From Spartobacteria bacterium (GTDB taxonomy: Bacteria > Verrucomicrobiota > Verrucomicrobiia > Chthoniobacterales > UBA6821), in the NCBI GenBank assembly GCA_947471565.1, contig CANIVT010000007.1:70909-103815 (forward strand): a DNA stretch of 32,907 nucleotides, written 5' to 3'. Positions within the stretch are counted from its first letter, which is position 1, and the number at the start of each line of letters is the position of its first letter. Below, one piece after another: positions 11,702-31,684 of this stretch. The notes beneath the pieces are model-generated. The model had not been told where the DNA came from and made no database searches. It saw only the letters and a program-made list of their open reading frames with translations. The translations under genes and the position numbers were made by a program.

Positions 11702-14700
11702 TTAAAGCGATGCCTGCACAGGGGCAACTGAGGCATTAGCGGCCCTTTTTTCGTCATCATCACCGCCGCCATAACCAAGAATATCGATGGAAAAGATCGA
11801 TGGCTGTTGATCACCCTGATCATTGCGATCGTTTCTTGATGCGGAATTTTCAGCAGCACTGTTGCCCGCAGCAGCAGCGGCAGTAGATCCTGCAGGCGGA
11901 GCGGCCGGCGGCGGAGCGGCCGGTGGAGGTGCGGAGGGAGCGGCCGGTGGAGGAGCCCCAACGGTCACACCTCCAGCAAGGATGTTATCTGCATTGAGGA
12001 TCTTCTCCGCGGCGAGGTTCAGATTTCCAAGCGAGCGGATGCCGGCATCACCGGCGTCGATGTATCCAGTCGGAGCGATCAGATCGACATCACCCGCACG
12101 CACTCCGGCCACCGCCGCAAGTACACCGATTCCACCGCCGGTCGCCAATCCTGCGAGGTCGGTCTGCACATCACCGCTTTGGGGATCCAAAAGAACTCTG
12201 GTTGGTGGTGCGGTGGCCACGGTTTTGGCGGACGAGCCGGCTGCGATATTTCCGAGATTCGACCAGATCATGATATCACCTCCACGGAGCGTGAAGATAC
12301 GGCCAATGCCGATATCCACATTCTCCTTCGTATAGATGTTCACCGTGCCGCCGCTTTCCGTCACGATGCCGGGCGGAGTAAGGCTCTGGCTGACGGCAAA
12401 GGGAGAGAGTATGATTCCTCCACCCGGAGCCAGCATACTGATTGCCCCGCCGCTTTTCGTCCTGATATCGCGTGAATTGAGCACGATGGATCCCTCCTGT
12501 CCCGCAGGCAGGTAGGATGCGATGGCATCCTGACCATTCTTGTAGGTACGGTATGTGGGGGAATCGACATCATTGAAATCACGCCCTGATTCGCGAAGCA
12601 CGATATAGAATAGGGAGAGTGCAAGCCGGCTCTTCTCATCCGCAGTCAGCCAGAGATCATCTTTCAGTTCCTGCACGGACTGAAGGCTGGAGAGCTTGGA
12701 GGAGATCGAACTTTCCCAGTTCCCGAGAGCCACATTCTTCAAATCCTTGAAATAGTCACCCGCACCGGGCATCGCAGAAACCTTTTCAAAGAGTCCACTG
12801 GCGTTGAGACCGGCACCAGCAAGGGAACCCGGCAATGAGGCTCCTGCGACAGTGATCAATGATGCTCCCTCAAAGGGGAGTGCGGGATTTCTAGCATTGC
12901 CTATGCTGGTGATACCGACACCCGTACCGTCGCTTCTGACATCCCCCGTGCCGAGATCGATATTTCCTCCTGCGATCACTTGGAGCATTCCCGGACCACT
13001 GATTTGGATATCTCCACTGCGTGGCTGTGGGCGGGCATACTCAGGCGGAAGGCTTTTTAGATCCAGAATTGCAGCAAGCAGATCGGGATTATTGGCATCG
13101 TAGAGACGCATCTCCCCGCCTGCCGAGATAATGCTCACATCGGATCGCAAAAGATGCTGGATAGCGATGGCCACATCGTAGAGATCCCCACCCACCTTGA
13201 TCTCCGTCTTTTTCGGGGCAAAGAGTTCCACACCCGAGAGGCTTCCAGTGCCGGCAGTGATGCGGATTGGCTCGGGATTGTTGCGATGGAGCAGTGTCTG
13301 GTCATGCCGTGCCACCTTCCCTTGAAGGATTGCATTGATGCCAGTATAGGATGCGGTCTCGGTCAGCGCGGCCCCGACAGCCCCGAGGTAGGTAGTATCC
13401 GTTTGGAGATTGGCAAGTCCGCTGGGTAGTACCGGCTGAGATCGTGGTGCCATGAGCGACGGGATTGATTCAGGCGATGCATCGGAGACATTGATAACTG
13501 AACCGGACCACACAGTTCCGGGAATCTGACGGAAAACACCTCTGATGGAAGCGGCGGCAAGCATGTTCAGGGTGCCTTGAGGCGCAGGCGAGAGGGTCAA
13601 ATCGCCTTGGAGATTGATATCGCCTGATAGCGACGCAAGATTCATCGTGCCCGGAAGCAGGGAGGCCATCTGAGGCAGTATTCGAAATTGAGCATCCAAA
13701 GGATCTTTTTCGGCTATTAGCAACCAGGGTTGATAGACACCGGGTTTGGGATGAGCGGTTTCCGCGTTTCCCATGCCGCTATGATAGAGCCAAGTTGAGT
13801 AGGCCGAATCGTTCAGGATCTTTGTTCGCAGGGTCAGATTGCCCGCCAAAGCGGTGGCAGCGAAGGAGGCATCCTGCCCATAAGTGGAGAAATACGTTTT
13901 ATAGCGCAGGTCGTTATTGATGCCCGGGGGTAGTAGAAAGACATTGCCGACCGGCCCAAGTAGAGCGTCACCGCCAGCAGTAACCGAGAGGGATCCTTTG
14001 CCAAGGAAGAATGAGGTGGGGAGGATGGCATCCTTGAGGGATTCTTGGCGTTCGGGTGAACGGAATGAGGGGTCCTTTTTGACAATGGAGTGAAGGTAAT
14101 CCCCGTACACATCCCTTGTCGGGTTGGATACAATATCGCCGGAGGCCATGATCAAACCGTCCCCCCGCTCCGTGTAGTAGATGCCCGCATCCAGATTTCC
14201 TACGGCACGGAGAATCAGATCACCGCCGCCGGTTTCAACGAGGGTGCTTTCCCCCGGAGTCAGACGTCTTGCTCCATCCCTTCCGGCCATGCGCCCTTGG
14301 GTCGGGAGTGATGCATCAACATTGCTGATATTCCCTCCTGCCAACATCGTGATGTTCCCACCTCCAAGAGTGCCGATTCCTTGGAAGAAACTTGGAAAAT
14401 TCACCCACCAAGTTGTAGACAATGCCTCAGTATCTCCTCTCAGATTGATTGAGTTCCATGTCCCTTCCGGAGCGATTTCGGATCTTCTGGAGAGCCAATT
14501 CACTGGCAATTGACGCGAAGAATCGGCCGCAAATCTACCGGGAGAGTCGGGATCAGGTTGAAGGTGCTCAACGTTCGCCCCTGCCTTTAAGGAGATATTA
14601 CCTCCTCCATAGGAGTAAAGAGGCACGAACTGACTCTGTTGGGAACTGCCGAGAACCGTGCTATTTGCATTGAGTCGGCCTGAAGAATTAGCCAAACGGG

Positions 14701-17700
14701 GAGCGTCAAAGGAACCATTCAAATTCTGATCGGCATCAGGAGCGCCAGCAGTATAAATCGTAGAAAACTGATTCATCAGACGAATGCTGTCCGCCGAACT
14801 TACCCTAATGTCTCCAGTGCCGGTCCTAATAACTTGGAAGAACCCCTGGATCGCTCCAGCAGTTTGGGCTCTTCCCTGCTCATTTGCTGGAATGACCACA
14901 TTCCCAGTCAGTGATGTCTTTCCTATCCAGACGCTTCCAGCCCCCTCCCTCAGTGAGGTTTCAGAAGATGCCGACGCAAGATCTGCCCCAGCGCCGATCC
15001 CATAGGACCATGATTGGAAGTTCTGTGGAAGGGCATTATTGAGTGCGATAAGGTTGGCCGTGTAGGTGGCGTTTTGGAATCCATCACTGAGCGCTCCCTC
15101 AAAACGAATATCCCCGGACGTTCTGAGAGTCAGGAATCCCGGCGCACCATTCTCACCGACCCTGGAGGTAGAAAGATCCCAATCAGTATTAAGCGTTAGA
15201 TTTCCTGTCCGGTTAATGATTTCGACGCCGGGAGCGAGGTTCAGGATATTGTTGATTGTTGATTGTTGATTGGCTGTCAGGCGCGAGCGGATGGCATTCG
15301 CTGTATCTGAATTGTAGCCAGCGGCCCCGAAGAAACCCTGGGCATTGTCAAGTGCGAGTTGCTGAACATTCTGAGTGCCGGTATAGGGCAGTCCTTGGAC
15401 ATTGACTGGGATGGACTGAATCATGTCGGCAGTTGCTCCACTTATCTCATATAGCTGATACCCTTCCACCGCGATGCTGGATGCCCCCACGATGGTGGCA
15501 TCGAAGGAACCGATCTGAATGTCTGAGAGATCGGCAGTGATCGGGGCTCTCAGGTGAAGGGTTCCCCCGAACTGATCCAGGCGCGTCGCGGCGGCCGTCA
15601 CTCCTAGATCGATTGAAGAAGCCGTCTGGAGATCCAGAACCGCATCCCTGTTGATATCAAGGTAGGTGGTCCCATCCTCCGCACTCCGCTCCACCGCGGC
15701 TCCCGCACTAAGGAAGACCGATCCTCCCTTACCGGCATTATCATAAGTGTCGCCATGAACCGTCAGGGCTGAGTTTGGCATCAGGATCACGCTGCCTGAT
15801 GCTTGGAGGGCAATGTTTCCACCCGTCTTTCCGGACGCATCGATCACACCATCCGGGGTCACGGTGATACTACCGTTGTCGGTAGTCATGGTGACATTGC
15901 GGTTCACAAGAGAGTTGTCGATCGCCAAATCACCGGTGCGAACCCTCAGGTCAAACGACTTGGTAAATCCCGCGTCGGAAATACCAATCACTTCGCCCTC
16001 CCCAGTCCTTCCAAAACCAAGCTGCGAGATTGATGCAAGTTCACCAAGATCCAGCAGCAGCGATCCTCCTTCACCGCCAGAGCCGGCAAGAGCTTGAATC
16101 ACGGCTCCATTCTCCAAAGAAAGACGCCCCGCCTTCCTGCCTGATACGGTATCGGCAAGCGAAGGTGCAAGAATCGCCAATGACCCGGCCGAACCTTTCG
16201 CCGCGGCATTGAGCAGGAGTTTCCCCTTCTGTCCTATGATGACATCTCCGCCAGCAGATGAGAATTCCATGCTCCCGGCATCCGTGAACTGTGTGACGGA
16301 GTTGATCGTCCTGGAGGTGCCGCCGACATTGAGTGAGGCCACTCCTCCGGTTCCGATGATGAGGTCACCTGCTGTTGCCCGCGCAGCGAGTTCGCCGCTC
16401 GGCAGCATGATCGATGTATTGATGGAGAGAGTCGATCCCTCAAGTGTCAACTTGGACCCCAGCCCCGGGGTCACGGATGACTGGGTCACATATTCGGGAT
16501 CCGGTGCCAGCAAACGCATGCCACCCGACGAGGTGATCGTTGTCTTGGCACCCTGGACACCCGTGACAAAGGGAGTGGTGACAAAGAGGTCGGTCGTTTG
16601 GGATATCAGGATAGGGAGACCTCCCGACAAGGCTTGGAGATCTTGTTCCGAAAGAACATCCCGATTCAGATCTGCAATCGCCTCAGACGCCACCCCGTAG
16701 GTTTGCGCAAGTGTTTCCAGACTATCCCCGGCTATCGTGGTGTAAGTCATCGGCTTTGTGCCGGCATGGAGTTCCCCTTTTCCGCTTCCCGCCAGAACGC
16801 CGGAAGCGTTCAACGAAACGTAGGAAAAACCATCCAGGGAAAGATCGTTTTCCCCGACCAGAATCGTCCGGGCGTTCAGTTCAAGGGTTCCTGAAGGCGT
16901 GCGTGGCGATCCATCCTCGGTTTTAGCCCGCAAGGGTGCACCCGAAACACCCGCACTGTTCCCAAGAAGAATGGTCCCGGCATTCAGGGAAAGGATGCCA
17001 TCTCCAATTCCCGTGCCCAAAATGGTCGCGGCATTCAGTGCAATTGATTCGGTGCCAGCAAATCCGAAGACACCCTGCCCCCTGAATTCAATGGATCCGT
17101 AACTTGTAAGATTGACTTTCCTCGCCCCGGATAAATTGTCGAGCGGATTTCCCAGAAGGTTCAGAACACCGTCGCTCATGGTCCCGTCAAAGCCCATCGC
17201 AATACTTCCCGCTGCTATGCCATAGGCATCTGCGGAGAGCTCGGCACTCTGGGAGATGAATCCGCGCCCTGAGGAATCAAGGTTGATGGATCCACCGTTG
17301 ATGCGTACCCCATTGCCAATCTCGTAACCGGTAATGGGTGCCTCCTTGTCGGATTCCCTTCTGGTCACCGTAGCCGAGGAATCGGAACTGGTCCTTACCA
17401 CCGCACCATTACCTTCGAGGTTGATTGCGGAAGCTGCACCGGAGCCCATTGCAGAAATGGAAGCATTCTCCTTAAGAATAATTCCATCCTTCGCGACCAG
17501 GATAAGGTCAGCCGCCGTGAGGGGCGTTCCTGCATTGTCCAAAATGACCTTGGCGGATGCCGCGGTGACAGAGACTCCAGTCGAGGAAATATTCCTGAAT
17601 CCTCCTATCAGCAGACTCCCCGCATTCCAGGAACTCAAGGCCGCCGCATTCAGGGCGATTGTTCCGACAGAGGCAGCCCCCCCGATCTGGAAATCCCTTG

Positions 17701-20700
17701 AACTGCCGATATCGATGGAGGATCCCCGAGCTCCCGCCCACCCCGCTCCTTGAACGCCGCCGAGGAGATTCATCGCCCCCGTAGATTTGATCTCGAGGCG
17801 CCCGGCATCTTGCACCGGATTTGCCGAGGCCGTCTTAGGGAGTGACTCCGAGGCTTTCAGCAGTCGGTATTCCGCGCTCTGAGCCAGGAGCGCAGGGGAA
17901 GTGATCTCGTAAAGCTCTGTCACATCCTGGACAAGGCGTCCACCCCGCATGTCATTATAACGGATACCAGCCACCATGGCGGTACCGTTCGGCATCTGCA
18001 GACTTGAAGGATTCCTCTCTTGGGCCATGCCGGTCGGTGTGATCAGGAAGCCTCCGGGGAAAAGCGCATAACGCGCCGGCAGGAGCGTGTAGGTGCCGGG
18101 AGCGAGGCCTGATCCCCCTGCAAGGGTGATCCGGTCCCCTATTGCAAGCGAAGTCGAGAGATATCCGGGATCGCCACCCGTGCGCGAGCGGTCCGCAAAG
18201 TTCGCGACGGGTATGAATTCCGATCCGAACGAAGGAAGAATCGCGTAGCTTCCCGAGGAGGGCGCCGCGATATCCCGCGTTCCCTTAAGGCCACTGATCC
18301 ACTGGAAAGCCGCAAGCTCCCCACCTCCGCGCAGATCGATTGAGGAACCAGCGAGCGTGTTGACCGAGAGGGCGGAGAGATTCACCCCTTTGGAAGGCAA
18401 TCCCGCAGAGGCAATATCCACACCGGATGGGTCGATCCACTGTGTCCCGTTGATGATAATGCCATACGGTATGGTGACGCCTTCACCACTGAGAGGATCG
18501 ATAGCGGAGATGCTCACTTTGCCCGAAGAACCGAGCGTGAGGGTTTCCGTGACCGGAACAGAAATACCGACAACGATTCCTGCTCCGCTGACAGGATCCC
18601 TTGGTGAGGCACCCGTCCCGTCCCAACCGAGATTGATGGTTCCGAACGGAGCTTGCAGTGTGCCGTTCTGGGTGATCGTGGAGGCGTACAGATTCAACTC
18701 TCCTCTTGCCGAGAGGGGCAGGGGGAGAAGCCCTCCTGACTGCTCCACAAGGATAGATCCCTTTCCTCCGGTAGGATTATAGGCGGCGAAGGTCATGCGT
18801 GATGCAGTCACCGGGTGGATCTGGGCGGCACGAAGAATCAGGCTTCCTGCGATGTTGACCGCGCCATCTCCACGGATGATTCCTCCAGGTGCAAGGAAGG
18901 AAGCCGAGGAGAGATTTGCCAGGAGCAAATTGCCGATCTCGATCAGGCGGGCCTCGATTTGCAGGGAGCCATTTCCACCGGAAGGGCCTACATACGGGTC
19001 ACTATCACCACCGAAGGCCTTGCTCAGCTTTGTGTCACCCGGTGTTCTGGCTCCAACCATGGAACTTCCCAGCGCCGCATGGCCGGCTTTGAACGTCACG
19101 GGCGAATCGGCGCTTATTGTTCCCCCTGAAGCCACTCGGAGACTCCCGGGAAGAGTGATCGAGACGGGACCTGAGAATTCCACATTACCGCCGAGTGTCA
19201 GGTTCTCGAATCCTCCGGTATTTGCTGAATCAGCGGCCAAGTATCCCTTGGACGAGATCTTCGCATTCCGATCGGCTACGATCCTTGCGCCAAGACCCTG
19301 GAGGCCTTGGGTGATGATCAGGTTCACATCCCGGGGGTCGGCAATCTGCTCGGCGGGGTTGTTGAGGTTATAGAATCTCCCGGAACTGACCGAGAGAGTC
19401 CCTCCGAGGGCTGATGCGCCACCCGCCCTCCCGAGCAAGGTTCCCTGACTCTCCAACAACTGGCCGCCGGTGAGAGTGATGCTGCCACCGGAACTCTGAA
19501 CCGTCAGGTCTCCGCCACGGGCACGGGACAACCCCGAGGCGACAAATCGGTTAGCCGACGTACCCGAGACATCAAGCACTGATCCATTCTTGAGTTGGAG
19601 ATTTCCCTCCAAGTAAACATCCCCGCCTTCGAGGACCGCTCCCAGCCTACGCCCCAGTCCGAGCGGGTCGGGCATGAAGAGTGCGGTTCCTGCGGCACTG
19701 ATTCGCGCCCCACTTCCGATCTGCACCGTCGCGTAGGCCATGTCGGGATCAGAGCTGAGATTCTCCGGGAAGCGTACGTCACCCTTGATTGAGATCGCCC
19801 CACCCGGGACGGAAAGGGTTCCTGCCAGATTGATCAATTTCCCTTCCACAGAAAGCGAACCTGTGGTGGCGACCGGCGTTGTCGATGTCCTTGCAGGGAG
19901 AGCAATCGATGGGGAGAGATTGATGACAGCACCCTCGTCGATGGCGACCTTACCCCTCACCACATATCCGGGAGAAACGGTCGCCTTGGGATCCACCAAA
20001 CCTTGGGCGATAAGCTTCAGGTTAACAGCGGGTGATATCCCGGAGGGCATCTGCATCTCGCTGAAGCCGGTGGTGGAGCGGTAGAGAACGTTTCTTACCA
20101 CCGGATTCACCACCGCTCCGGAAGCGACGCGGATACCGGGGATCTCCTCATCGGCACTTCCCGATCCCGCCTCAAAGCCGATACCCTTGAGGTTGAAAAG
20201 AGAGAACCCACCGGCGCTGAAAAAGGAGGGGTTTAGCATCAGGATTCGACCGTCACCCGTAATACCACCGATCTGGATGGCCGGTGCCTTGATGGAGAGT
20301 TCTCCTGATCGGGAGCCAACCCCGCCAAAACCGCGAAGTTGCCCGGCCAGCATGAGGGAGCCATCGCGGATGGTCTTGACTTCAAGATCCTGACCACCCT
20401 CGATCAAGATACTTCCCCCTGAACCGACCTTAACCGAGGCATCCGACCCAACCCATGCACCCGCCGAGACATCGATCAGGCTCCCCCTCTCGATACCGAC
20501 ATCAAGCGCGGAGATGGAGACACTTCCACCGTCCAGCATCACCGTACCGGCCAGCGATCGATCCGTGAAATCATTGGCCACCAACCCCCTAGTGCTGAGA
20601 ATCGAGGAACTGCCAATTCTAATGATTCCCGTTGAGTCATATGCCTTAAAGCGGGACGAGTTGGCCCCGTCCAAGAGGATCAGATCGTCATAACTGACAT

Positions 20701-23680
20701 TGTAGGCGCTCAGGGAGATCCTGCCGCCGGGAGCCGATACCGTGCCATCGATGGCAAGGGAGGAAGCTAACAGATTCACGGATCCCGCAGGTCCAAGATC
20801 GAGGCTGACACCCCGGGGCAGCAGGATGGATCCGTCGTGATTGAGAATCGAGAGGTGGCCGAATCCACCACTCCCGAAGATTCCGGAATCGAGCCTGATC
20901 TGATTGATGACGCCGGAAGCGGATGACCCGGCTGATCCAATGACCAACTGCGGTGCATAGGGGGAGTCGGGAACAAGCGATGCACCTGAGTAAATCCTGC
21001 TTTGAAGGATCGCGAGATTCAGGGAAGCGGGATCGGGAAGATGCATATCCCCGGAGACAGAACGGAGTTGGCGGGCACCGGTCACGACTCCACCCCTCAT
21101 CGTTCCCTCCAGACTCATCCTCGGTGCTTGGATCGTGAGACTTCCTCCACTTCCCCCCTCATAGTAGGGGATTTCCGTCATGCTTCCCGCATTTTCAACA
21201 ACCCTTTCGTAAACCATGTCCGGCGTGGCCTTGGAGATATCGATGGGCAATCCATTGAAGAGCAATTTCGTGGTGGCGTATGTGGTTTCGCTAAACCTGA
21301 CCCAGCCTCCCGAGACATCCAGAACGGCACCCCTTCCTACATCCACGCGATCACCAGCCCGCAGGGCGATGCTTCCTCCATCCGCCGTCAACTCCCCTGC
21401 AGTCTTGCCGATGAGGCTCACGTAGCCTGCTGCGTTGCCCAACGGAGTTCCCACCCAATCCCTCCCTTCGTAGGTTCCAGTAATTCTAGTATCGATCGTG
21501 ATTTTCTTCCCGCGGAAAACACTCTCCCTCTGCAAGGGGAAGTCGGCCAATTCCGGCCCGCGCAACTCGATCGTCTGGAAATTCCTGGCCCCGTCGATCT
21601 CGGTTCCTGTGGAACCCGCGACACTGATCAGGCTTCCCGGATCCAGCGTGATTTTCCCTTCGGCAGAGGTGCCCACCGCACCGGTGACAAACATCCCGAA
21701 TTGCTGGGTAGCGGGGCGATACCAGTTTCCGGCAGTAATGCTGATCCCCGAGTCGAGTCGTGCCGGCACACTCGATGAATCACCCGTGGAGAGACGAGAC
21801 GGACGCGTCATGTCATAATAGATATTTTCGTTTGCCTCACCGGTTACCGGTTTGGCACCGGGAGCCAGTACGATGGAACCCCCTTCGGCCCTCACCGAGT
21901 TTCCCATCATTGCAATCACGGAGGAAAGTGAGACCTTGGTACCCGGCAAGGTTGCGGCACTCAATGCCTCGGGAAGGATCCTGATCACGCCCGCAGAACC
22001 CAGTAGAATACTTCCCGTGGTGCCACCCGGCAGGGTCTGGTCATACCAGTAGGGACTGAATCGGGTATAAGTGGGCACCACGGCGTTGTAGACCGCCTGC
22101 AGATCCACCCTGCCATTGAGTGTTACTGAGGTGGAACTCTCGATAACGCCGTTCTGCGTGAGATCCCGTCCGACCATCGCGGCATGGCCTCGGGGCATCT
22201 CGATCAGGCCGTTATTCACAACCGTACCGACCCGGGTTCCCGATTGGTCGGTGGAAAAGGTTTTGGCCGCGGTCCTGTCCGCATCATCCACAACACGACC
22301 TACATGGACATCCAACCCGCGAAGACTCGGATCCGATGAGGGGTGGGCATTCACCCCCACCTGAAGGCCCGCCGCAAGAATGGTCTGTCCATCGGGCGTG
22401 GAGATCGTGCCATCATTTTGCACACTCGGTCCCACCAGCATCACGCGCCCTCCAGTTCCATTGGGATTTGCGGTGGAGATCGAGGCGCCCTTTTCCACCT
22501 TCAGACCACCGATCGCAGAGGCGGTAATCGTAGTGCCGTTTCCCGGATCCCAGGATTCAGGATAATTCTGCGATGAGGAAAGTTTCAGAGCTGAGAAGAG
22601 GAACTGGTAATCGGTGTTGTTGAGCAGGCCACGCCCCTCGATCCCATTCATGGGATCGCCTGCAAAATAGGGGTTGATGGGGAGGGTGGAGGCAACCAAA
22701 GAGTGGATATTCACCTCGGAGCCGTTGTGGAACATGATCCCGTCCTGGTTGAGAATATAGACCTGTCCCCTCATGTTCTCGGTTCCCGGAGTTCTGCCCC
22801 CTGAGGTTATCCTCCCGTAGATGCTCGAGGGGGAAGCCGTGCCCGTGATCTTGTTGAAGGCGATCCACTTGCCTGCATCCGCACCGCCCCTGCTCTGGTC
22901 GAAGTTCACCGTGGTCCTGGGACCGACGTTGAAGTTCTTCCAGTAGAGATAGGCATTCTGTTCCGTCTGGGTGATCTCGACGTTGTGGTCTCCCGAGGAC
23001 TGAAGACCGGTCTTGTCCGCATTGATGGAAGCGCCCTTCCATGAGGTGGTCAGGGGCTTTCCGGCACCATCAAAACCATCGTGCGGGTGAAGCCAGTTTG
23101 CAGACAGACCATTCGGGATCACAGCCGACCCGTTGACTGTTTGCCCGTTGGGAAGGGTAGGATTACCGGATCGGGCGGCGGCCCTGGCAGTAGCTGCGGC
23201 ATTTTGTTGCATAGCCCGCATGGCACCGACGGCCGTGTCGGACCGCTCAATAGACTGACGTGCCAGTGCGGCCGTCATGGCGGCAGAAGCCGCTCCGGCA
23301 TTCTGGAGATTGGAGGCCGAGCCGCGACCGGCAGTTCCTGTGGCCGCCCCCCCTGTCGTACCCATCGTGATGGCCAGAAGAGGAGGCGAAGAGGTAAGGA
23401 AGAGGAGGGCGGAGAGAGCGCTTGCCGTGATGCGATAGCCTAGGGGTAGGCGTGGGAGAGAGGAGTGAATCGTCGAGCGTTGAGGGTCGAGGGTCGAGGG
23501 CTGGATGGGGTGAGGCAAAGTCGAGAGTCGAGAGTCGAGAGTCGAGGGGGGGGTACCCTCTTTGTAGTAGGAACTGAAGGAGGTCCCGATAGCCCTTGCT
23601 TCCAACTTCAAACTCACAACTCTCAACCTCTCTCTACAGAGACGGGAGAGATGCTTCAAATTGGGAAAAAGGCGCGTCAT
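11702..23680 (-). CDS. Giant filamentous haemagglutinin-type adhesin (TPS domain, DUF3739)
   Basis: A 3992-codon frame for a very large exported beta-helix protein, probably an adhesin of the two-partner secretion type. The most likely signal peptide core is at about residues 81-104 (SALSALLFLTSSPPLLA). After an Ala-rich stretch comes the TPS/haemagglutinin N-domain (about 188-370), with VYILNQDGIMFHNGSEVNIH and SLVAST. Thousands of residues of Gly/Ser/Asn-rich beta-helix repeats follow. A LysM-like segment lies at about 2311-2358. The C-terminal region (up to about 3900) has the DUF3739 pattern, for example GDVDLIAPTGYIDAGDAGIR, then a Pro/Ala-rich linker and an acidic Gly-rich tail. No ATG, GTG or TTG lies between the heptamer repeats and the signal peptide, so translation should start upstream: ATG 23680, or a GTG/TTG at about residues 19-22. 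No TpsB transporter is in the window. Confidence 0.9.
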   Translation of the reverse strand: MTRLFPNLKHLSRLCRERLRVVSLKLEARAIGTSFSSYYKEGTPPSTLDSRLSTLPHPIQPSTLDPQRSTIHSSLPRLPLGYRITASALSALLFLTSSPPLLAITMGTTGGAATGTAGRGSASNLQNAGAASAAMTAALARQSIERSDTAVGAMRAMQQNAAATARAAARSGNPTLPNGQTVNGSAVIPNGLSANWLHPHDGFDGAGKPLTTSWKGASINADKTGLQSSGDHNVEITQTEQNAYLYWKNFNVGPRTTVNFDQSRGGADAGKWIAFNKITGTASPSSIYGRITSGGRTPGTENMRGQVYILNQDGIMFHNGSEVNIHSLVASTLPINPYFAGDPMNGIEGRGLLNNTDYQFLFSALKLSSSQNYPESWDPGNGTTITASAIGGLKVEKGASISTANPNGTGGRVMLVGPSVQNDGTISTPDGQTILAAGLQVGVNAHPSSDPSLRGLDVHVGRVVDDADRTAAKTFSTDQSGTRVGTVVNNGLIEMPRGHAAMVGRDLTQNGVIESSTSVTLNGRVDLQAVYNAVVPTYTRFSPYWYDQTLPGGTTGSILLGSAGVIRILPEALSAATLPGTKVSLSSVIAMMGNSVRAEGGSIVLAPGAKPVTGEANENIYYDMTRPSRLSTGDSSSVPARLDSGISITAGNWYRPATQQFGMFVTGAVGTSAEGKITLDPGSLISVAGSTGTEIDGARNFQTIELRGPELADFPLQRESVFRGKKITIDTRITGTYEGRDWVGTPLGNAAGYVSLIGKTAGELTADGGSIALRAGDRVDVGRGAVLDVSGGWVRFSETTYATTKLLFNGLPIDISKATPDMVYERVVENAGSMTEIPYYEGGSGGSLTIQAPRMSLEGTMRGGVVTGARQLRSVSGDMHLPDPASLNLAILQSRIYSGASLVPDSPYAPQLVIGSAGSSASGVINQIRLDSGIFGSGGFGHLSILNHDGSILLPRGVSLDLGPAGSVNLLASSLAIDGTVSAPGGRISLSAYNVSYDDLILLDGANSSRFKAYDSTGIIRIGSSSILSTRGLVANDFTDRSLAGTVMLDGGSVSISALDVGIERGSLIDVSAGAWVGSDASVKVGSGGSILIEGGQDLEVKTIRDGSLMLAGQLRGFGGVGSRSGELSIKAPAIQIGGITGDGRILMLNPSFFSAGGFSLFNLKGIGFEAGSGSADEEIPGIRVASGAVVNPVVRNVLYRSTTGFSEMQMPSGISPAVNLKLIAQGLVDPKATVSPGYVVRGKVAIDEGAVINLSPSIALPARTSTTPVATTGSLSVEGKLINLAGTLSVPGGAISIKGDVRFPENLSSDPDMAYATVQIGSGARISAAGTALFMPDPLGLGRRLGAVLEGGDVYLEGNLQLKNGSVLDVSGTSANRFVASGLSRARGGDLTVQSSGGSITLTGGQLLESQGTLLGRAGGASALGGTLSVSSGRFYNLNNPAEQIADPRDVNLIITQGLQGLGARIVADRNAKISSKGYLAADSANTGGFENLTLGGNVEFSGPVSITLPGSLRVASGGTISADSPVTFKAGHAALGSSMVGARTPGDTKLSKAFGGDSDPYVGPSGGNGSLQIEARLIEIGNLLLANLSSASFLAPGGIIRGDGAVNIAGSLILRAAQIHPVTASRMTFAAYNPTGGKGSILVEQSGGLLPLPLSARGELNLYASTITQNGTLQAPFGTINLGWDGTGASPRDPVSGAGIVVGISVPVTETLTLGSSGKVSISAIDPLSGEGVTIPYGIIINGTQWIDPSGVDIASAGLPSKGVNLSALSVNTLAGSSIDLRGGGELAAFQWISGLKGTRDIAAPSSGSYAILPSFGSEFIPVANFADRSRTGGDPGYLSTSLAIGDRITLAGGSGLAPGTYTLLPARYALFPGGFLITPTGMAQERNPSSLQMPNGTAMVAGIRYNDMRGGRLVQDVTELYEITSPALLAQSAEYRLLKASESLPKTASANPVQDAGRLEIKSTGAMNLLGGVQGAGWAGARGSSIDIGSSRDFQIGGAASVGTIALNAAALSSWNAGSLLIGGFRNISSTGVSVTAASAKVILDNAGTPLTAADLILVAKDGIILKENASISAMGSGAASAINLEGNGAVVRTSSDSSATVTRRESDKEAPITGYEIGNGVRINGGSINLDSSGRGFISQSAELSADAYGIAAGSIAMGFDGTMSDGVLNLLGNPLDNLSGARKVNLTSYGSIEFRGQGVFGFAGTESIALNAATILGTGIGDGILSLNAGTILLGNSAGVSGAPLRAKTEDGSPRTPSGTLELNARTILVGENDLSLDGFSYVSLNASGVLAGSGKGELHAGTKPMTYTTIAGDSLETLAQTYGVASEAIADLNRDVLSEQDLQALSGGLPILISQTTDLFVTTPFVTGVQGAKTTITSSGGMRLLAPDPEYVTQSSVTPGLGSKLTLEGSTLSINTSIMLPSGELAARATAGDLIIGTGGVASLNVGGTSRTINSVTQFTDAGSMEFSSAGGDVIIGQKGKLLLNAAAKGSAGSLAILAPSLADTVSGRKAGRLSLENGAVIQALAGSGGEGGSLLLDLGELASISQLGFGRTGEGEVIGISDAGFTKSFDLRVRTGDLAIDNSLVNRNVTMTTDNGSITVTPDGVIDASGKTGGNIALQASGSVILMPNSALTVHGDTYDNAGKGGSVFLSAGAAVERSAEDGTTYLDINRDAVLDLQTASSIDLGVTAAATRLDQFGGTLHLRAPITADLSDIQIGSFDATIVGASSIAVEGYQLYEISGATADMIQSIPVNVQGLPYTGTQNVQQLALDNAQGFFGAAGYNSDTANAIRSRLTANQQSTINNILNLAPGVEIINRTGNLTLNTDWDLSTSRVGENGAPGFLTLRTSGDIRFEGALSDGFQNATYTANLIALNNALPQNFQSWSYGIGAGADLASASSETSLREGAGSVWIGKTSLTGNVVIPANEQGRAQTAGAIQGFFQVIRTGTGDIRVSSADSIRLMNQFSTIYTAGAPDADQNLNGSFDAPRLANSSGRLNANSTVLGSSQQSQFVPLYSYGGGNISLKAGANVEHLQPDPDSPGRFAADSSRQLPVNWLSRRSEIAPEGTWNSINLRGDTEALSTTWWVNFPSFFQGIGTLGGGNITMLAGGNISNVDASLPTQGRMAGRDGARRLTPGESTLVETGGGDLILRAVGNLDAGIYYTERGDGLIMASGDIVSNPTRDVYGDYLHSIVKKDPSFRSPERQESLKDAILPTSFFLGKGSLSVTAGGDALLGPVGNVFLLPPGINNDLRYKTYFSTYGQDASFAATALAGNLTLRTKILNDSAYSTWLYHSGMGNAETAHPKPGVYQPWLLIAEKDPLDAQFRILPQMASLLPGTMNLASLSGDINLQGDLTLSPAPQGTLNMLAAASIRGVFRQIPGTVWSGSVINVSDASPESIPSLMAPRSQPVLPSGLANLQTDTTYLGAVGAALTETASYTGINAILQGKVARHDQTLLHRNNPEPIRITAGTGSLSGVELFAPKKTEIKVGGDLYDVAIAIQHLLRSDVSIISAGGEMRLYDANNPDLLAAILDLKSLPPEYARPQPRSGDIQISGPGMLQVIAGGNIDLGTGDVRSDGTGVGITSIGNARNPALPFEGASLITVAGASLPGSLAGAGLNASGLFEKVSAMPGAGDYFKDLKNVALGNWESSISSKLSSLQSVQELKDDLWLTADEKSRLALSLFYIVLRESGRDFNDVDSPTYRTYKNGQDAIASYLPAGQEGSIVLNSRDIRTKSGGAISMLAPGGGIILSPFAVSQSLTPPGIVTESGGTVNIYTKENVDIGIGRIFTLRGGDIMIWSNLGNIAAGSSAKTVATAPPTRVLLDPQSGDVQTDLAGLATGGGIGVLAAVAGVRAGDVDLIAPTGYIDAGDAGIRSLGNLNLAAEKILNADNILAGGVTVGAPPPAAPSAPPPAAPPPAAPPAGSTAAAAAGNSAAENSASRNDRNDQGDQQPSIFSIDILGYGGGDDDEKRAANASVAPVQASL
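16600..16750 (-). other. LysM-like segment inside the giant adhesin
   Basis: Residues about 2311-2358 of the giant protein read MTYTTIAGDSLETLAQTYGV followed by a helix with ADLNRD and a closing GGLPILI. This fits the beta-alpha-alpha-beta LysM pattern (YTV-x-GDSL-x-x-IA, then a loop with N). LysM modules bind N-acetylglucosamine polymers such as peptidoglycan. The match is by eye. Confidence 0.65.
23473..23548. repeat. Heptanucleotide repeat array in the adhesin 5' coding region
   Basis: On the plus strand, four heptamers at 23473-23500 (tcgagcg, ttgaggg, tcgaggg, tcgaggg), about 20 bases of degenerate sequence, then four at 23521-23548 (tcgagag three times and tcgaggg). They are followed by a run of eight Gs at 23546-23553. 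All are read within the N-terminal part of the giant adhesin frame, giving peptides such as STLDSRLSTL. Unit length and G-run length are not multiples of three. Confidence 0.9.
23599..23626. repeat. Second heptamer-periodic tract in the adhesin 5' region
   Basis: Four consecutive degenerate heptamers on the plus strand: cttccaa, cttcaaa, ctcacaa, ctctcaa. The unit differs from the 23473-23548 array but the period is the same. It lies nearer the proposed ATG at 23680. Confidence 0.7.
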
Positions 23681-23713
23681 CAGAGTTTCTGATACTAGAA
23701 CAGAAACCCTCTG
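23681..23713. promoter_or_regulatory. Imperfect inverted repeat abutting the adhesin start codon
   Basis: Arms at 23681-23691 (cagagtttctg) and 23701-23713 (cagaaaccctctg) pair with a two-base bulge around a nine-base loop, immediately upstream of ATG 23680 on the minus strand. In the mRNA it could block ribosome access or mark a protein-binding site. The role is inferred only. The rest of 23714-23899 should contain the promoter, but no convincing -35/-10 pair stands out. Confidence 0.4.
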
Positions 23714-23899
23714 TCGGCGCGTTACAATTCCGACAAAAATCGACTCTTCATCAGAGACGGAGGATGCAATCTGTAGATTTTTATCACACCACCGATTGGT
23801 TAACCGGGGCTAGATCGGCAAAGACCCATTTAAGGACTGGCGAATGTCATGTTCGTTCAACAACGCATCGGATCATAGGTAAAGGGAGGACGTTGCCCT

Positions 23900-30555: not shown

Positions 30556-30648
30556 GGGCATTCATTGGCCACAAGAGGCACAAGAGGCACAGAAAAGACG
30601 GGGGATGCTAAAGGGAAAGTCGAGGGACGAAGTGTCGAGGGTCGAGGG
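30556..30648. repeat. 93-base direct repeat, left copy
   Basis: Matches 31553-31645 at 89 of 93 positions by hand alignment. It contains the internal tandem agaggcacaagaggcac and ends in the tcgaggg heptamers also seen inside the giant adhesin gene. Confidence 0.92.
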
Positions 30649-30711
30649 AACCTGAACCAAGCTTCTGGGAGGGAGCTTCTAGAGAGCAGGAGGGTTGCAG
30701 GTTGCATTTTT

Positions 30712-31552: not shown

Positions 31553-31645
31553 GGGCATTCATTGGCCACAAGAGGCACAAGAGGCACAGAGAAGACGGTG
31601 GATGCTAAAGGGAAAGTCGAGGGACGAAGTGTCGAGCGTCGAGAG
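31553..31645. repeat. 93-base direct repeat, right copy
   Basis: Partner of 30556-30648 with four mismatches, same orientation. Differences fall in the aga(a/g)aag, cgg(g/t)gg and terminal heptamer positions. Confidence 0.92.
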
Positions 31646-31684
31646 CGGTTAGAAAGGCTGACACTCAGACACGCTGAAATTCTA

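What the first reader, a model, noticed from the sequence alone, without database searches (positions are those of the whole stretch)
23465..23680. Possible phase-variable contingency locus at the 5' end of the giant adhesin gene
Heptanucleotide arrays (23473-23500 and 23521-23548), a G8/C8 tract (23546-23553) and another heptamer-periodic tract (23599-23626) all lie inside the reading frame, between the only ATG upstream and the signal peptide. Gain or loss of one heptamer or one C changes the frame and would switch off a 3992-codon surface protein. No ATG, GTG or TTG lies between the repeats and the signal peptide, so translation has to cross them. Simple-sequence repeats in adhesin genes are a known switching mechanism, but heptamers of this type in a TPS adhesin are not something I recognise.
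Basis: partly seen in the sequence, partly recalled or inferred. Interest (0 to 1): 0.75.

Follow-up and report, generated by a model that had tools for sequence, protein, structure and literature searches.

The report
Dispersed heptamer repeats in adhesin leader
The start of a giant surface-adhesin gene in an uncultured freshwater Verrucomicrobiota bacterium carries short 7-base repeats that could switch the gene off if they changed length, but the same repeats are scattered all over this genus's genomes and nothing yet shows that they act as a switch here.

Summary
In detail: 4 GTCGAGR heptamers plus G8 (23520-23553) and a second array (23472-23499, two perfect units) lie inside the 3,992-codon ORF of a two-partner-secretion (TPS/FHA) exoprotein. 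One claim is wrong: an in-frame TTG (23518-23516) lies after array 1 and G8. Comparison with congeneric genomes supports ATG 23680 as the start: a conserved box (TGTCGGAATTGTAAC) sits 43-47 nt before an ATG in 12 homologues, usually opening into the body. Gain or loss of 1 or 2 units, or of 1 or 2 C, truncates to 77-146 aa. So the switch geometry exists. But the heptamer is dispersed through this genus (of 83 arrays about 70 fall outside called genes; others lie in-frame in linkers of glycosyltransferases and other enzymes). The leader that carries it is nearly neutral as protein (dN about equal to dS), and the sister species has the same unit number (4) there, with a different unit variant. 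Best reading: a dispersed, stop-free heptamer tolerated in an unconstrained leader, giving contingency potential but unproven phase variation (about 25%). Heptamers in TPS adhesins are not new: H. influenzae hmw1A/hmw2A have them in the promoter and, in one strain, inside the ORF.

The parts
23721..23735 (-). Conserved upstream box TGTCGGAATTGTAAC (putative activator site of the adhesin promoter)
   Evidence: Found upstream of 12 homologues, 43-47 nt before an ATG; exact only here in this genome, one other site with 1 mismatch
23692..23697 (-). Putative -10 element TAGTAT; a TAnnnT-like hexamer recurs at this spacing in most homologues; predicts a nearly leaderless mRNA
   Evidence: Homologue upstream regions compared by eye
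23678..23680 (-). Probable start codon ATG of the adhesin
   Evidence: Conserved spacing to the box; opens into the body in 9 of the 12 homologues that have the box
23375..23680 (-). Long N-terminal leader (about 75 aa) plus signal peptide, nearly neutral at protein level
   Evidence: Pooled dN about equal to dS, substitutions even over codon positions
23599..23626 (-). Degenerate heptamer-periodic tract (GTTGAGA-GTTGTGA-GTTTGAA-GTTGGAA), opposite orientation to arrays 1 and 2
   Evidence: Sequence; opposite-orientation neighbour found
23520..23547 (+). Heptamer array 1, (GTCGAGA)3 GTCGAGG
23546..23553 (+). G8 tract (C8 on the coding strand), overlaps the end of array 1; absent from sister species G003
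23516..23518 (-). In-frame TTG (codon 55), possible alternative start that bypasses array 1 and G8
23472..23499 (+). Heptamer array 2, GTCGAGC GTTGAGG GTCGAGG GTCGAGG
11702..23680 (-). Giant TPS/FHA exoprotein, 3,992 aa (PF05860 TPS, TIGR01901, DUF3739)

Best explanation
The repeats are copies of a dispersed heptamer (GTCGAGR / YCTCGAC) that this freshwater Chthoniobacterales genus carries through its genomes. Three units span seven codons, so one array reads as the same seven-residue cycle in all three frames of a strand, without stops on either strand (LDSRLST or VESRESR types); it can therefore sit inside genes if the total length keeps the frame. Here it sits in a long N-terminal leader between a start codon just downstream of a conserved promoter and the signal peptide of a TPS adhesin, a stretch whose amino-acid sequence is hardly constrained. 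Translation from ATG 23680 most likely reads through the arrays. A change of unit number or C-run length would truncate the protein, so the site is a potential contingency locus, but it is more likely tolerated repeat turnover than a selected fast switch. Shown: position, dispersal, in-frame occurrence in other genes, frame consequences, conserved box-to-ATG geometry. Inferred: start codon use, neutrality as the reason for tolerance, low switching rate.
For: Dispersal: 23 exact two-unit matches in this genome against 4 for the reversed control pattern; present in 12 of 16 genus members (with 1 mismatch); with three units, in 11 of 13 genus members sampled but rare in the rest of the order (matches in 4 of 38 genera in all). 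Census of 83 arrays genus-wide: 70 outside called genes and 13 inside, the adhesin leader itself being among the 70 because the caller cannot see its weak coding signal. In-frame copies interrupt GT4 glycosyltransferases between or within their Pfam domains, a DegT aminotransferase, an epimerase, and possibly a YidC N-terminal extension; one GT linker differs by 40 codons between G000 and G004, frame kept. Start: box 43-47 nt before an ATG in 12 homologues, open into the body in 9. Leader neutrality: pooled NG86 dN 0.27, dS 0.26, codon-position changes 21/21/17, against dN 0.43, dS 2.5 in the downstream region. Sister G003 has four units at the same place, homogenised to CTCGACC instead of CTCGACT, still in frame. 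Orthologous array L032/L082 has the same four positions in both species. Truncation by one unit.
Against: Different homogenised unit variants in G000 and G003 imply unit turnover, hence some mutability. A contingency role and a dispersed origin are not exclusive. Even codon-position changes and dN about equal to dS would also fit an untranslated leader. No strain-level data, so the slippage rate is unknown.
Confidence: 0.58

Rival explanations
1. Active phase-variable contingency locus: slipped-strand mispairing in the heptamers or C8 switches the giant adhesin on and off at high rate, and selection keeps the repeats for that purpose.
For: Repeats in frame before the signal peptide; changes of 1 or 2 units truncate to 77-146 aa, a change of 3 restores. 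Four uninterrupted heptamers pass the >2-unit screening threshold used for H. influenzae (PMC2651432). Sister species keeps an array at the same place with a different unit variant. TPS adhesins are known phase-variable targets (PMC8262952).
Against: Short arrays; same count in the sister species; the heptamer is genome-wide and mostly outside genes; C8 is absent in G003 and C8/G8 occurs at about 47 sites in the genome; leaders of the other genus homologues lack a comparable period-7 signal.
Confidence: 0.25
2. The leader is a 5' UTR or upstream ORF and the adhesin starts downstream (TTG 23518 or a non-AUG codon), so array 1 and C8 do not affect the reading frame.
For: dN about equal to dS and even codon-position changes in the leader; in G001 and G005 the first ORF ends at a TGA next to or overlapping a new ATG that opens the body, so fusion to the leader is not essential; in-frame TTG at 23518.
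Against: 9 of the 12 homologues with the box keep an open frame from the box-spaced ATG into the body; no Shine-Dalgarno-like sequence before TTG 23518; sister G003 stays in frame across the array.
Confidence: 0.2
3. The repeats act on transcription or mRNA (as the hmw heptamers do), not on the reading frame.
For: Precedent in H. influenzae, where heptamer number changes hmw1A expression (PMC8262952).
Against: The conserved box and putative -10 lie upstream of the ATG and the repeats downstream of it; the leader RNA folds no better than shuffles (z -0.64).
Confidence: 0.06
4. Assembly or consensus error in the repeats of a metagenome-assembled genome.
For: The genome looks like a MAG (46 contigs, unnamed; its named relatives are MAGs); homopolymer and repeat calls are error-prone.
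Against: The frame is intact across both arrays, and the sister species, assembled separately, has the same kind of array in frame.
Confidence: 0.04

Closest known systems
Haemophilus influenzae hmw1A/hmw2A heptanucleotide repeats
   Same: TPS exoprotein genes with tandem 7-bp repeats at or near the 5' end; in strain PittAA a heptamer tract lies inside the hmw1a ORF and a frameshift there is consistent with repeat-length change (PMC2651432)
   Different: hmw tracts have about 13-38 units and usually lie in the promoter region (PMC8262952, PMC2651432); here 4 and 2 perfect units, in the ORF before the signal peptide, and the unit is dispersed through the genome
TAACTGA dispersed heptamer repeats of Beggiatoaceae, Cyanobacteria and Bacteroidetes
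   Same: Short direct heptamer arrays at many loci, mostly intergenic, some inside ORFs, tolerated mainly at protein periphery (PMC4679880)
   Different: Different unit; TAACTGA has stops in all frames of one orientation, whereas GTCGAGR is stop-free in all six; no bias to start codons shown here
Rickettsia palindromic elements inserted in frame in protein genes
   Same: Repeat DNA tolerated in frame inside coding sequences (my own knowledge; literature searched, not read)
   Different: Those are longer palindromic elements, not heptamer arrays

Membership tests
SSR-mediated translational contingency locus | Uninterrupted SSR inside the 5' part of an ORF, unit length not a multiple of 3 | tested here: met
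   Four GTCGAGR units at 23520-23547 in the ORF; off-frame products 77-146 aa
SSR-mediated translational contingency locus | Translation starts upstream of the repeats | tested here: inconclusive
   Box-to-ATG spacing and open frames support it; in-frame TTG 23518 leaves an alternative for array 1
SSR-mediated translational contingency locus | Unit number varies between strains or within a population | not testable with these tools
   One genome per species held; no reads. Between sister species the count is the same (4) with different unit variants
SSR-mediated translational contingency locus | Reversible on/off switching of expression | not testable with these tools
   Needs cultures or reporters
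SSR-mediated translational contingency locus | Repeat concentrated in switchable surface genes rather than dispersed (a criterion added here, not a formal definition) | tested here: not met
   About 70 of 83 arrays lie outside called genes, others in enzymes
HMW-type promoter heptamer system | Heptamers between or overlapping promoter elements, modulating transcription | tested here: not met
   Repeats lie downstream of the putative promoter and start
Two-partner secretion exoprotein | TPS secretion domain at the N terminus and a TpsB partner in the genome | tested here: met
   PF05860 E 5e-15 and TIGR01901; ShlB-type TpsB at G000:C7:52047-52964
Dispersed heptamer direct repeats (TAACTGA-like) | Many short arrays of one heptamer across a genome, mostly intergenic | tested here: met
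Dispersed heptamer direct repeats (TAACTGA-like) | Unit TAACTGA | tested here: not met
   Unit is GTCGAGR

The most novel reading that the evidence does not exclude
A six-frame-open dispersed heptamer seeds adhesin leaders and enzyme linkers of one bacterial genus in frame, creating a genome-wide set of slippable sites in surface-polysaccharide and adhesin genes, with adhesin leaders acting as expendable, recombining cassettes that host the switch.
Probability: 0.12. Interest if true: 0.72.

Novelty: new variant of a known kind. Interest (0 to 1): 0.45.

Why it matters
If the arrays slip in nature, this would be a contingency locus in a free-living, uncultured group for which a limited open-access search found no described case, and it would show how a dispersed repeat becomes a switch. 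Even without switching, a heptamer with no stop in any frame that settles in frame in leaders and glycosyltransferase linkers is a useful case of repeat DNA reshaping proteins, and it warns against calling every in-ORF repeat a phase-variable locus.

Tried and rejected
RNA structure of the leader: nothing beyond shuffles. G8 as a special mark: rejected, about 47 sites genome-wide. Inverted-pair element: 13 of 79 arrays have an opposite-orientation neighbour within 250 nt and 19 a same-orientation one, so clustering but no consistent inverted architecture. Regulon of the upstream box: only one other near match in the genome, not followed up. Orthologues of the repeat-bearing GT in the genus: only G004 has one at the threshold used, so no empty site could be shown. 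Papers on Verrucomicrobia phase variation or TPS in Verrucomicrobia: nothing on this system among the titles found. Cyanobacterial STRR heptamers: no paper in the library for the terms tried.
Full report
WHAT IS THERE. The window is G000:C7:70909-103815, from a 2.28-Mb genome in 46 contigs. Its nearest named relatives are Spartobacteria/Chthoniobacterales metagenome-assembled genomes, several apparently from lakes. The ORF 23680-11702 (-) is a 3,992-aa TPS/FHA exoprotein (PF05860, DUF3739, TIGR01901). A TpsB partner of the ShlB family lies on the same contig at C7:52047-52964, and a second giant paralogue at about C7:57-69 kb. The lag-7 periodicity far exceeds shuffles.

IS IT TRANSLATED. Sixteen N-terminal homologues (this one included) were lined up from the same genus. 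In twelve of them a box like TGTCGGAATTGTAAC lies 43-47 nt before an ATG. A TAnnnT-like hexamer, judged by eye, recurs about 23-25 nt after the box in most of them, which puts the ATG close to the predicted transcription start. In nine of the twelve that ATG reads open into the body. In G001 and G005a the first ORF ends at a TGA next to or overlapping a new ATG that opens the body, and in G015 the in-frame ATG lies 8 nt further on. This supports ATG 23680 as the start. The leader is nearly neutral at protein level: G000/G003 NG86 dN 0.33, dS 0.54 with changes 11/14/12 by codon position; G004a/G013 pre-signal leader dN 0.21, dS 0.10; pooled dN 0.27, dS 0.26. The downstream region of G000/G003 gives dN 0.43, dS 2.5. 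A UTR would look the same, so the start is probable, not proven.

WHAT THE REPEAT IS. GTCGAGRGTCGAGR occurs 23 times in this genome (reversed control 4) and in 12 of 16 genus members. With three units it is found in 11 of 13 genus members sampled but in few other genomes of the order; G092 has a long array of about 13 units. A rough gene-caller census of 83 arrays puts 70 outside called genes and 13 inside. It misses genes with weak coding signal, such as this leader and the GT at L065:1516-2907, so the in-gene share is a lower bound. In-frame copies sit in GT4 glycosyltransferases between or within their domains, in a DegT aminotransferase and in an epimerase. The unit is stop-free in all six frames. 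In the GT shared by G000 and G004 the linker differs by 40 codons with the frame kept, and the arrays differ in orientation.

DOES IT SWITCH. Adding or removing 1 or 2 units, or 1 or 2 C, truncates the protein to 77-146 aa; a change of 3 restores it. In sister species G003 (rpoB 95.2% identical) array 1 also has four units, CTCGACC instead of CTCGACT, and the C8 is absent. Same count with homogenised but different units suggests turnover with retained frame. Another orthologous array (L032/L082) shows the same four units with one base changed. In H. influenzae more than two heptamer units was the screening threshold (PMC2651432), but the known switching hmw tracts have many more units. Mutability rises with unit number (PMC5953494). 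No reads or conspecific genomes were available, so switching is neither shown nor excluded.

HISTORY OF THE SEGMENT. By rpoB, G000-G003 and G004-G013 are sister pairs, about 86% identical across. Promoter-leader DNA follows these pairs: G000-G003 73% over 220 nt, G004a-G013 85% over 369 nt. The bodies do not: the TPS region of G000 is 87% identical to G004a but 49% to G003, and G003 is 77% identical to G013. G000 and G004a are about 89-90% identical over the body DNA, with about 98-100% over some 2.4 kb, too similar for genomes with 87% rpoB. Upstream genes also pair by body class. So the leader segment has a different history from both flanks; recombination is the likely cause, its direction is open, and chimeric assembly was not excluded.

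COMPARISON WITH WHAT IS KNOWN. It would work like a translational contingency locus if it slips, but membership cannot be granted: length variation and switching were not testable. It is not an HMW-type promoter system, because the repeats lie in the ORF. It resembles the dispersed TAACTGA heptamers in distribution (PMC4679880), with a different, stop-free unit.

VERDICT. A real and well-placed repeat, best read as a dispersed heptamer tolerated in an unconstrained leader, with contingency potential. The phase-variation reading keeps about 25%.

Noticed in passing
window 11702-23680; L107 (G004), L080 (G003), L109 (G013): The promoter-leader segment follows the species tree while body and upstream genes fall into two trans-species classes; G000 and G004a share about 2.4 kb at 98-100% DNA identity although rpoB is only 87% identical.
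   Followed up: partly
L065 1516-2907, L065 5362-6792, L075 1335-2615, L084 1307-2578, L127 1910-3076, L146 2114-3043: GTCGAGR arrays in frame in linkers of GT4 glycosyltransferases, several at about the same place before the C-terminal domain.
   Followed up: partly
L008 (G001) and L016 (G005) adhesin leaders: The box-spaced leader ORF stops at a TGA next to or overlapping an ATG that opens the body, suggesting reinitiation or broken leaders.
   Followed up: partly
window 23721-23735; L086 (G000:C13:62245-62259): The conserved box TGTCGGAATTGTAAC has only one other near match in the genome; that site was not examined.
   Followed up: no
window 15248-15272: A second perfect heptamer run, CAATCAA x3.6, lies in the coding body; the aligned G004a sequence lacks the periodicity.
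   Followed up: partly
window 30570-30660 and 31567-31650: Two near-identical intergenic stretches with CACAAGAGG nonamers followed by GTCGAG heptamers, about 1 kb apart.
   Followed up: no
G092:C41:24604-24694: Array of about 13 perfect GTCGAGG units in another family of the order.
   Followed up: no
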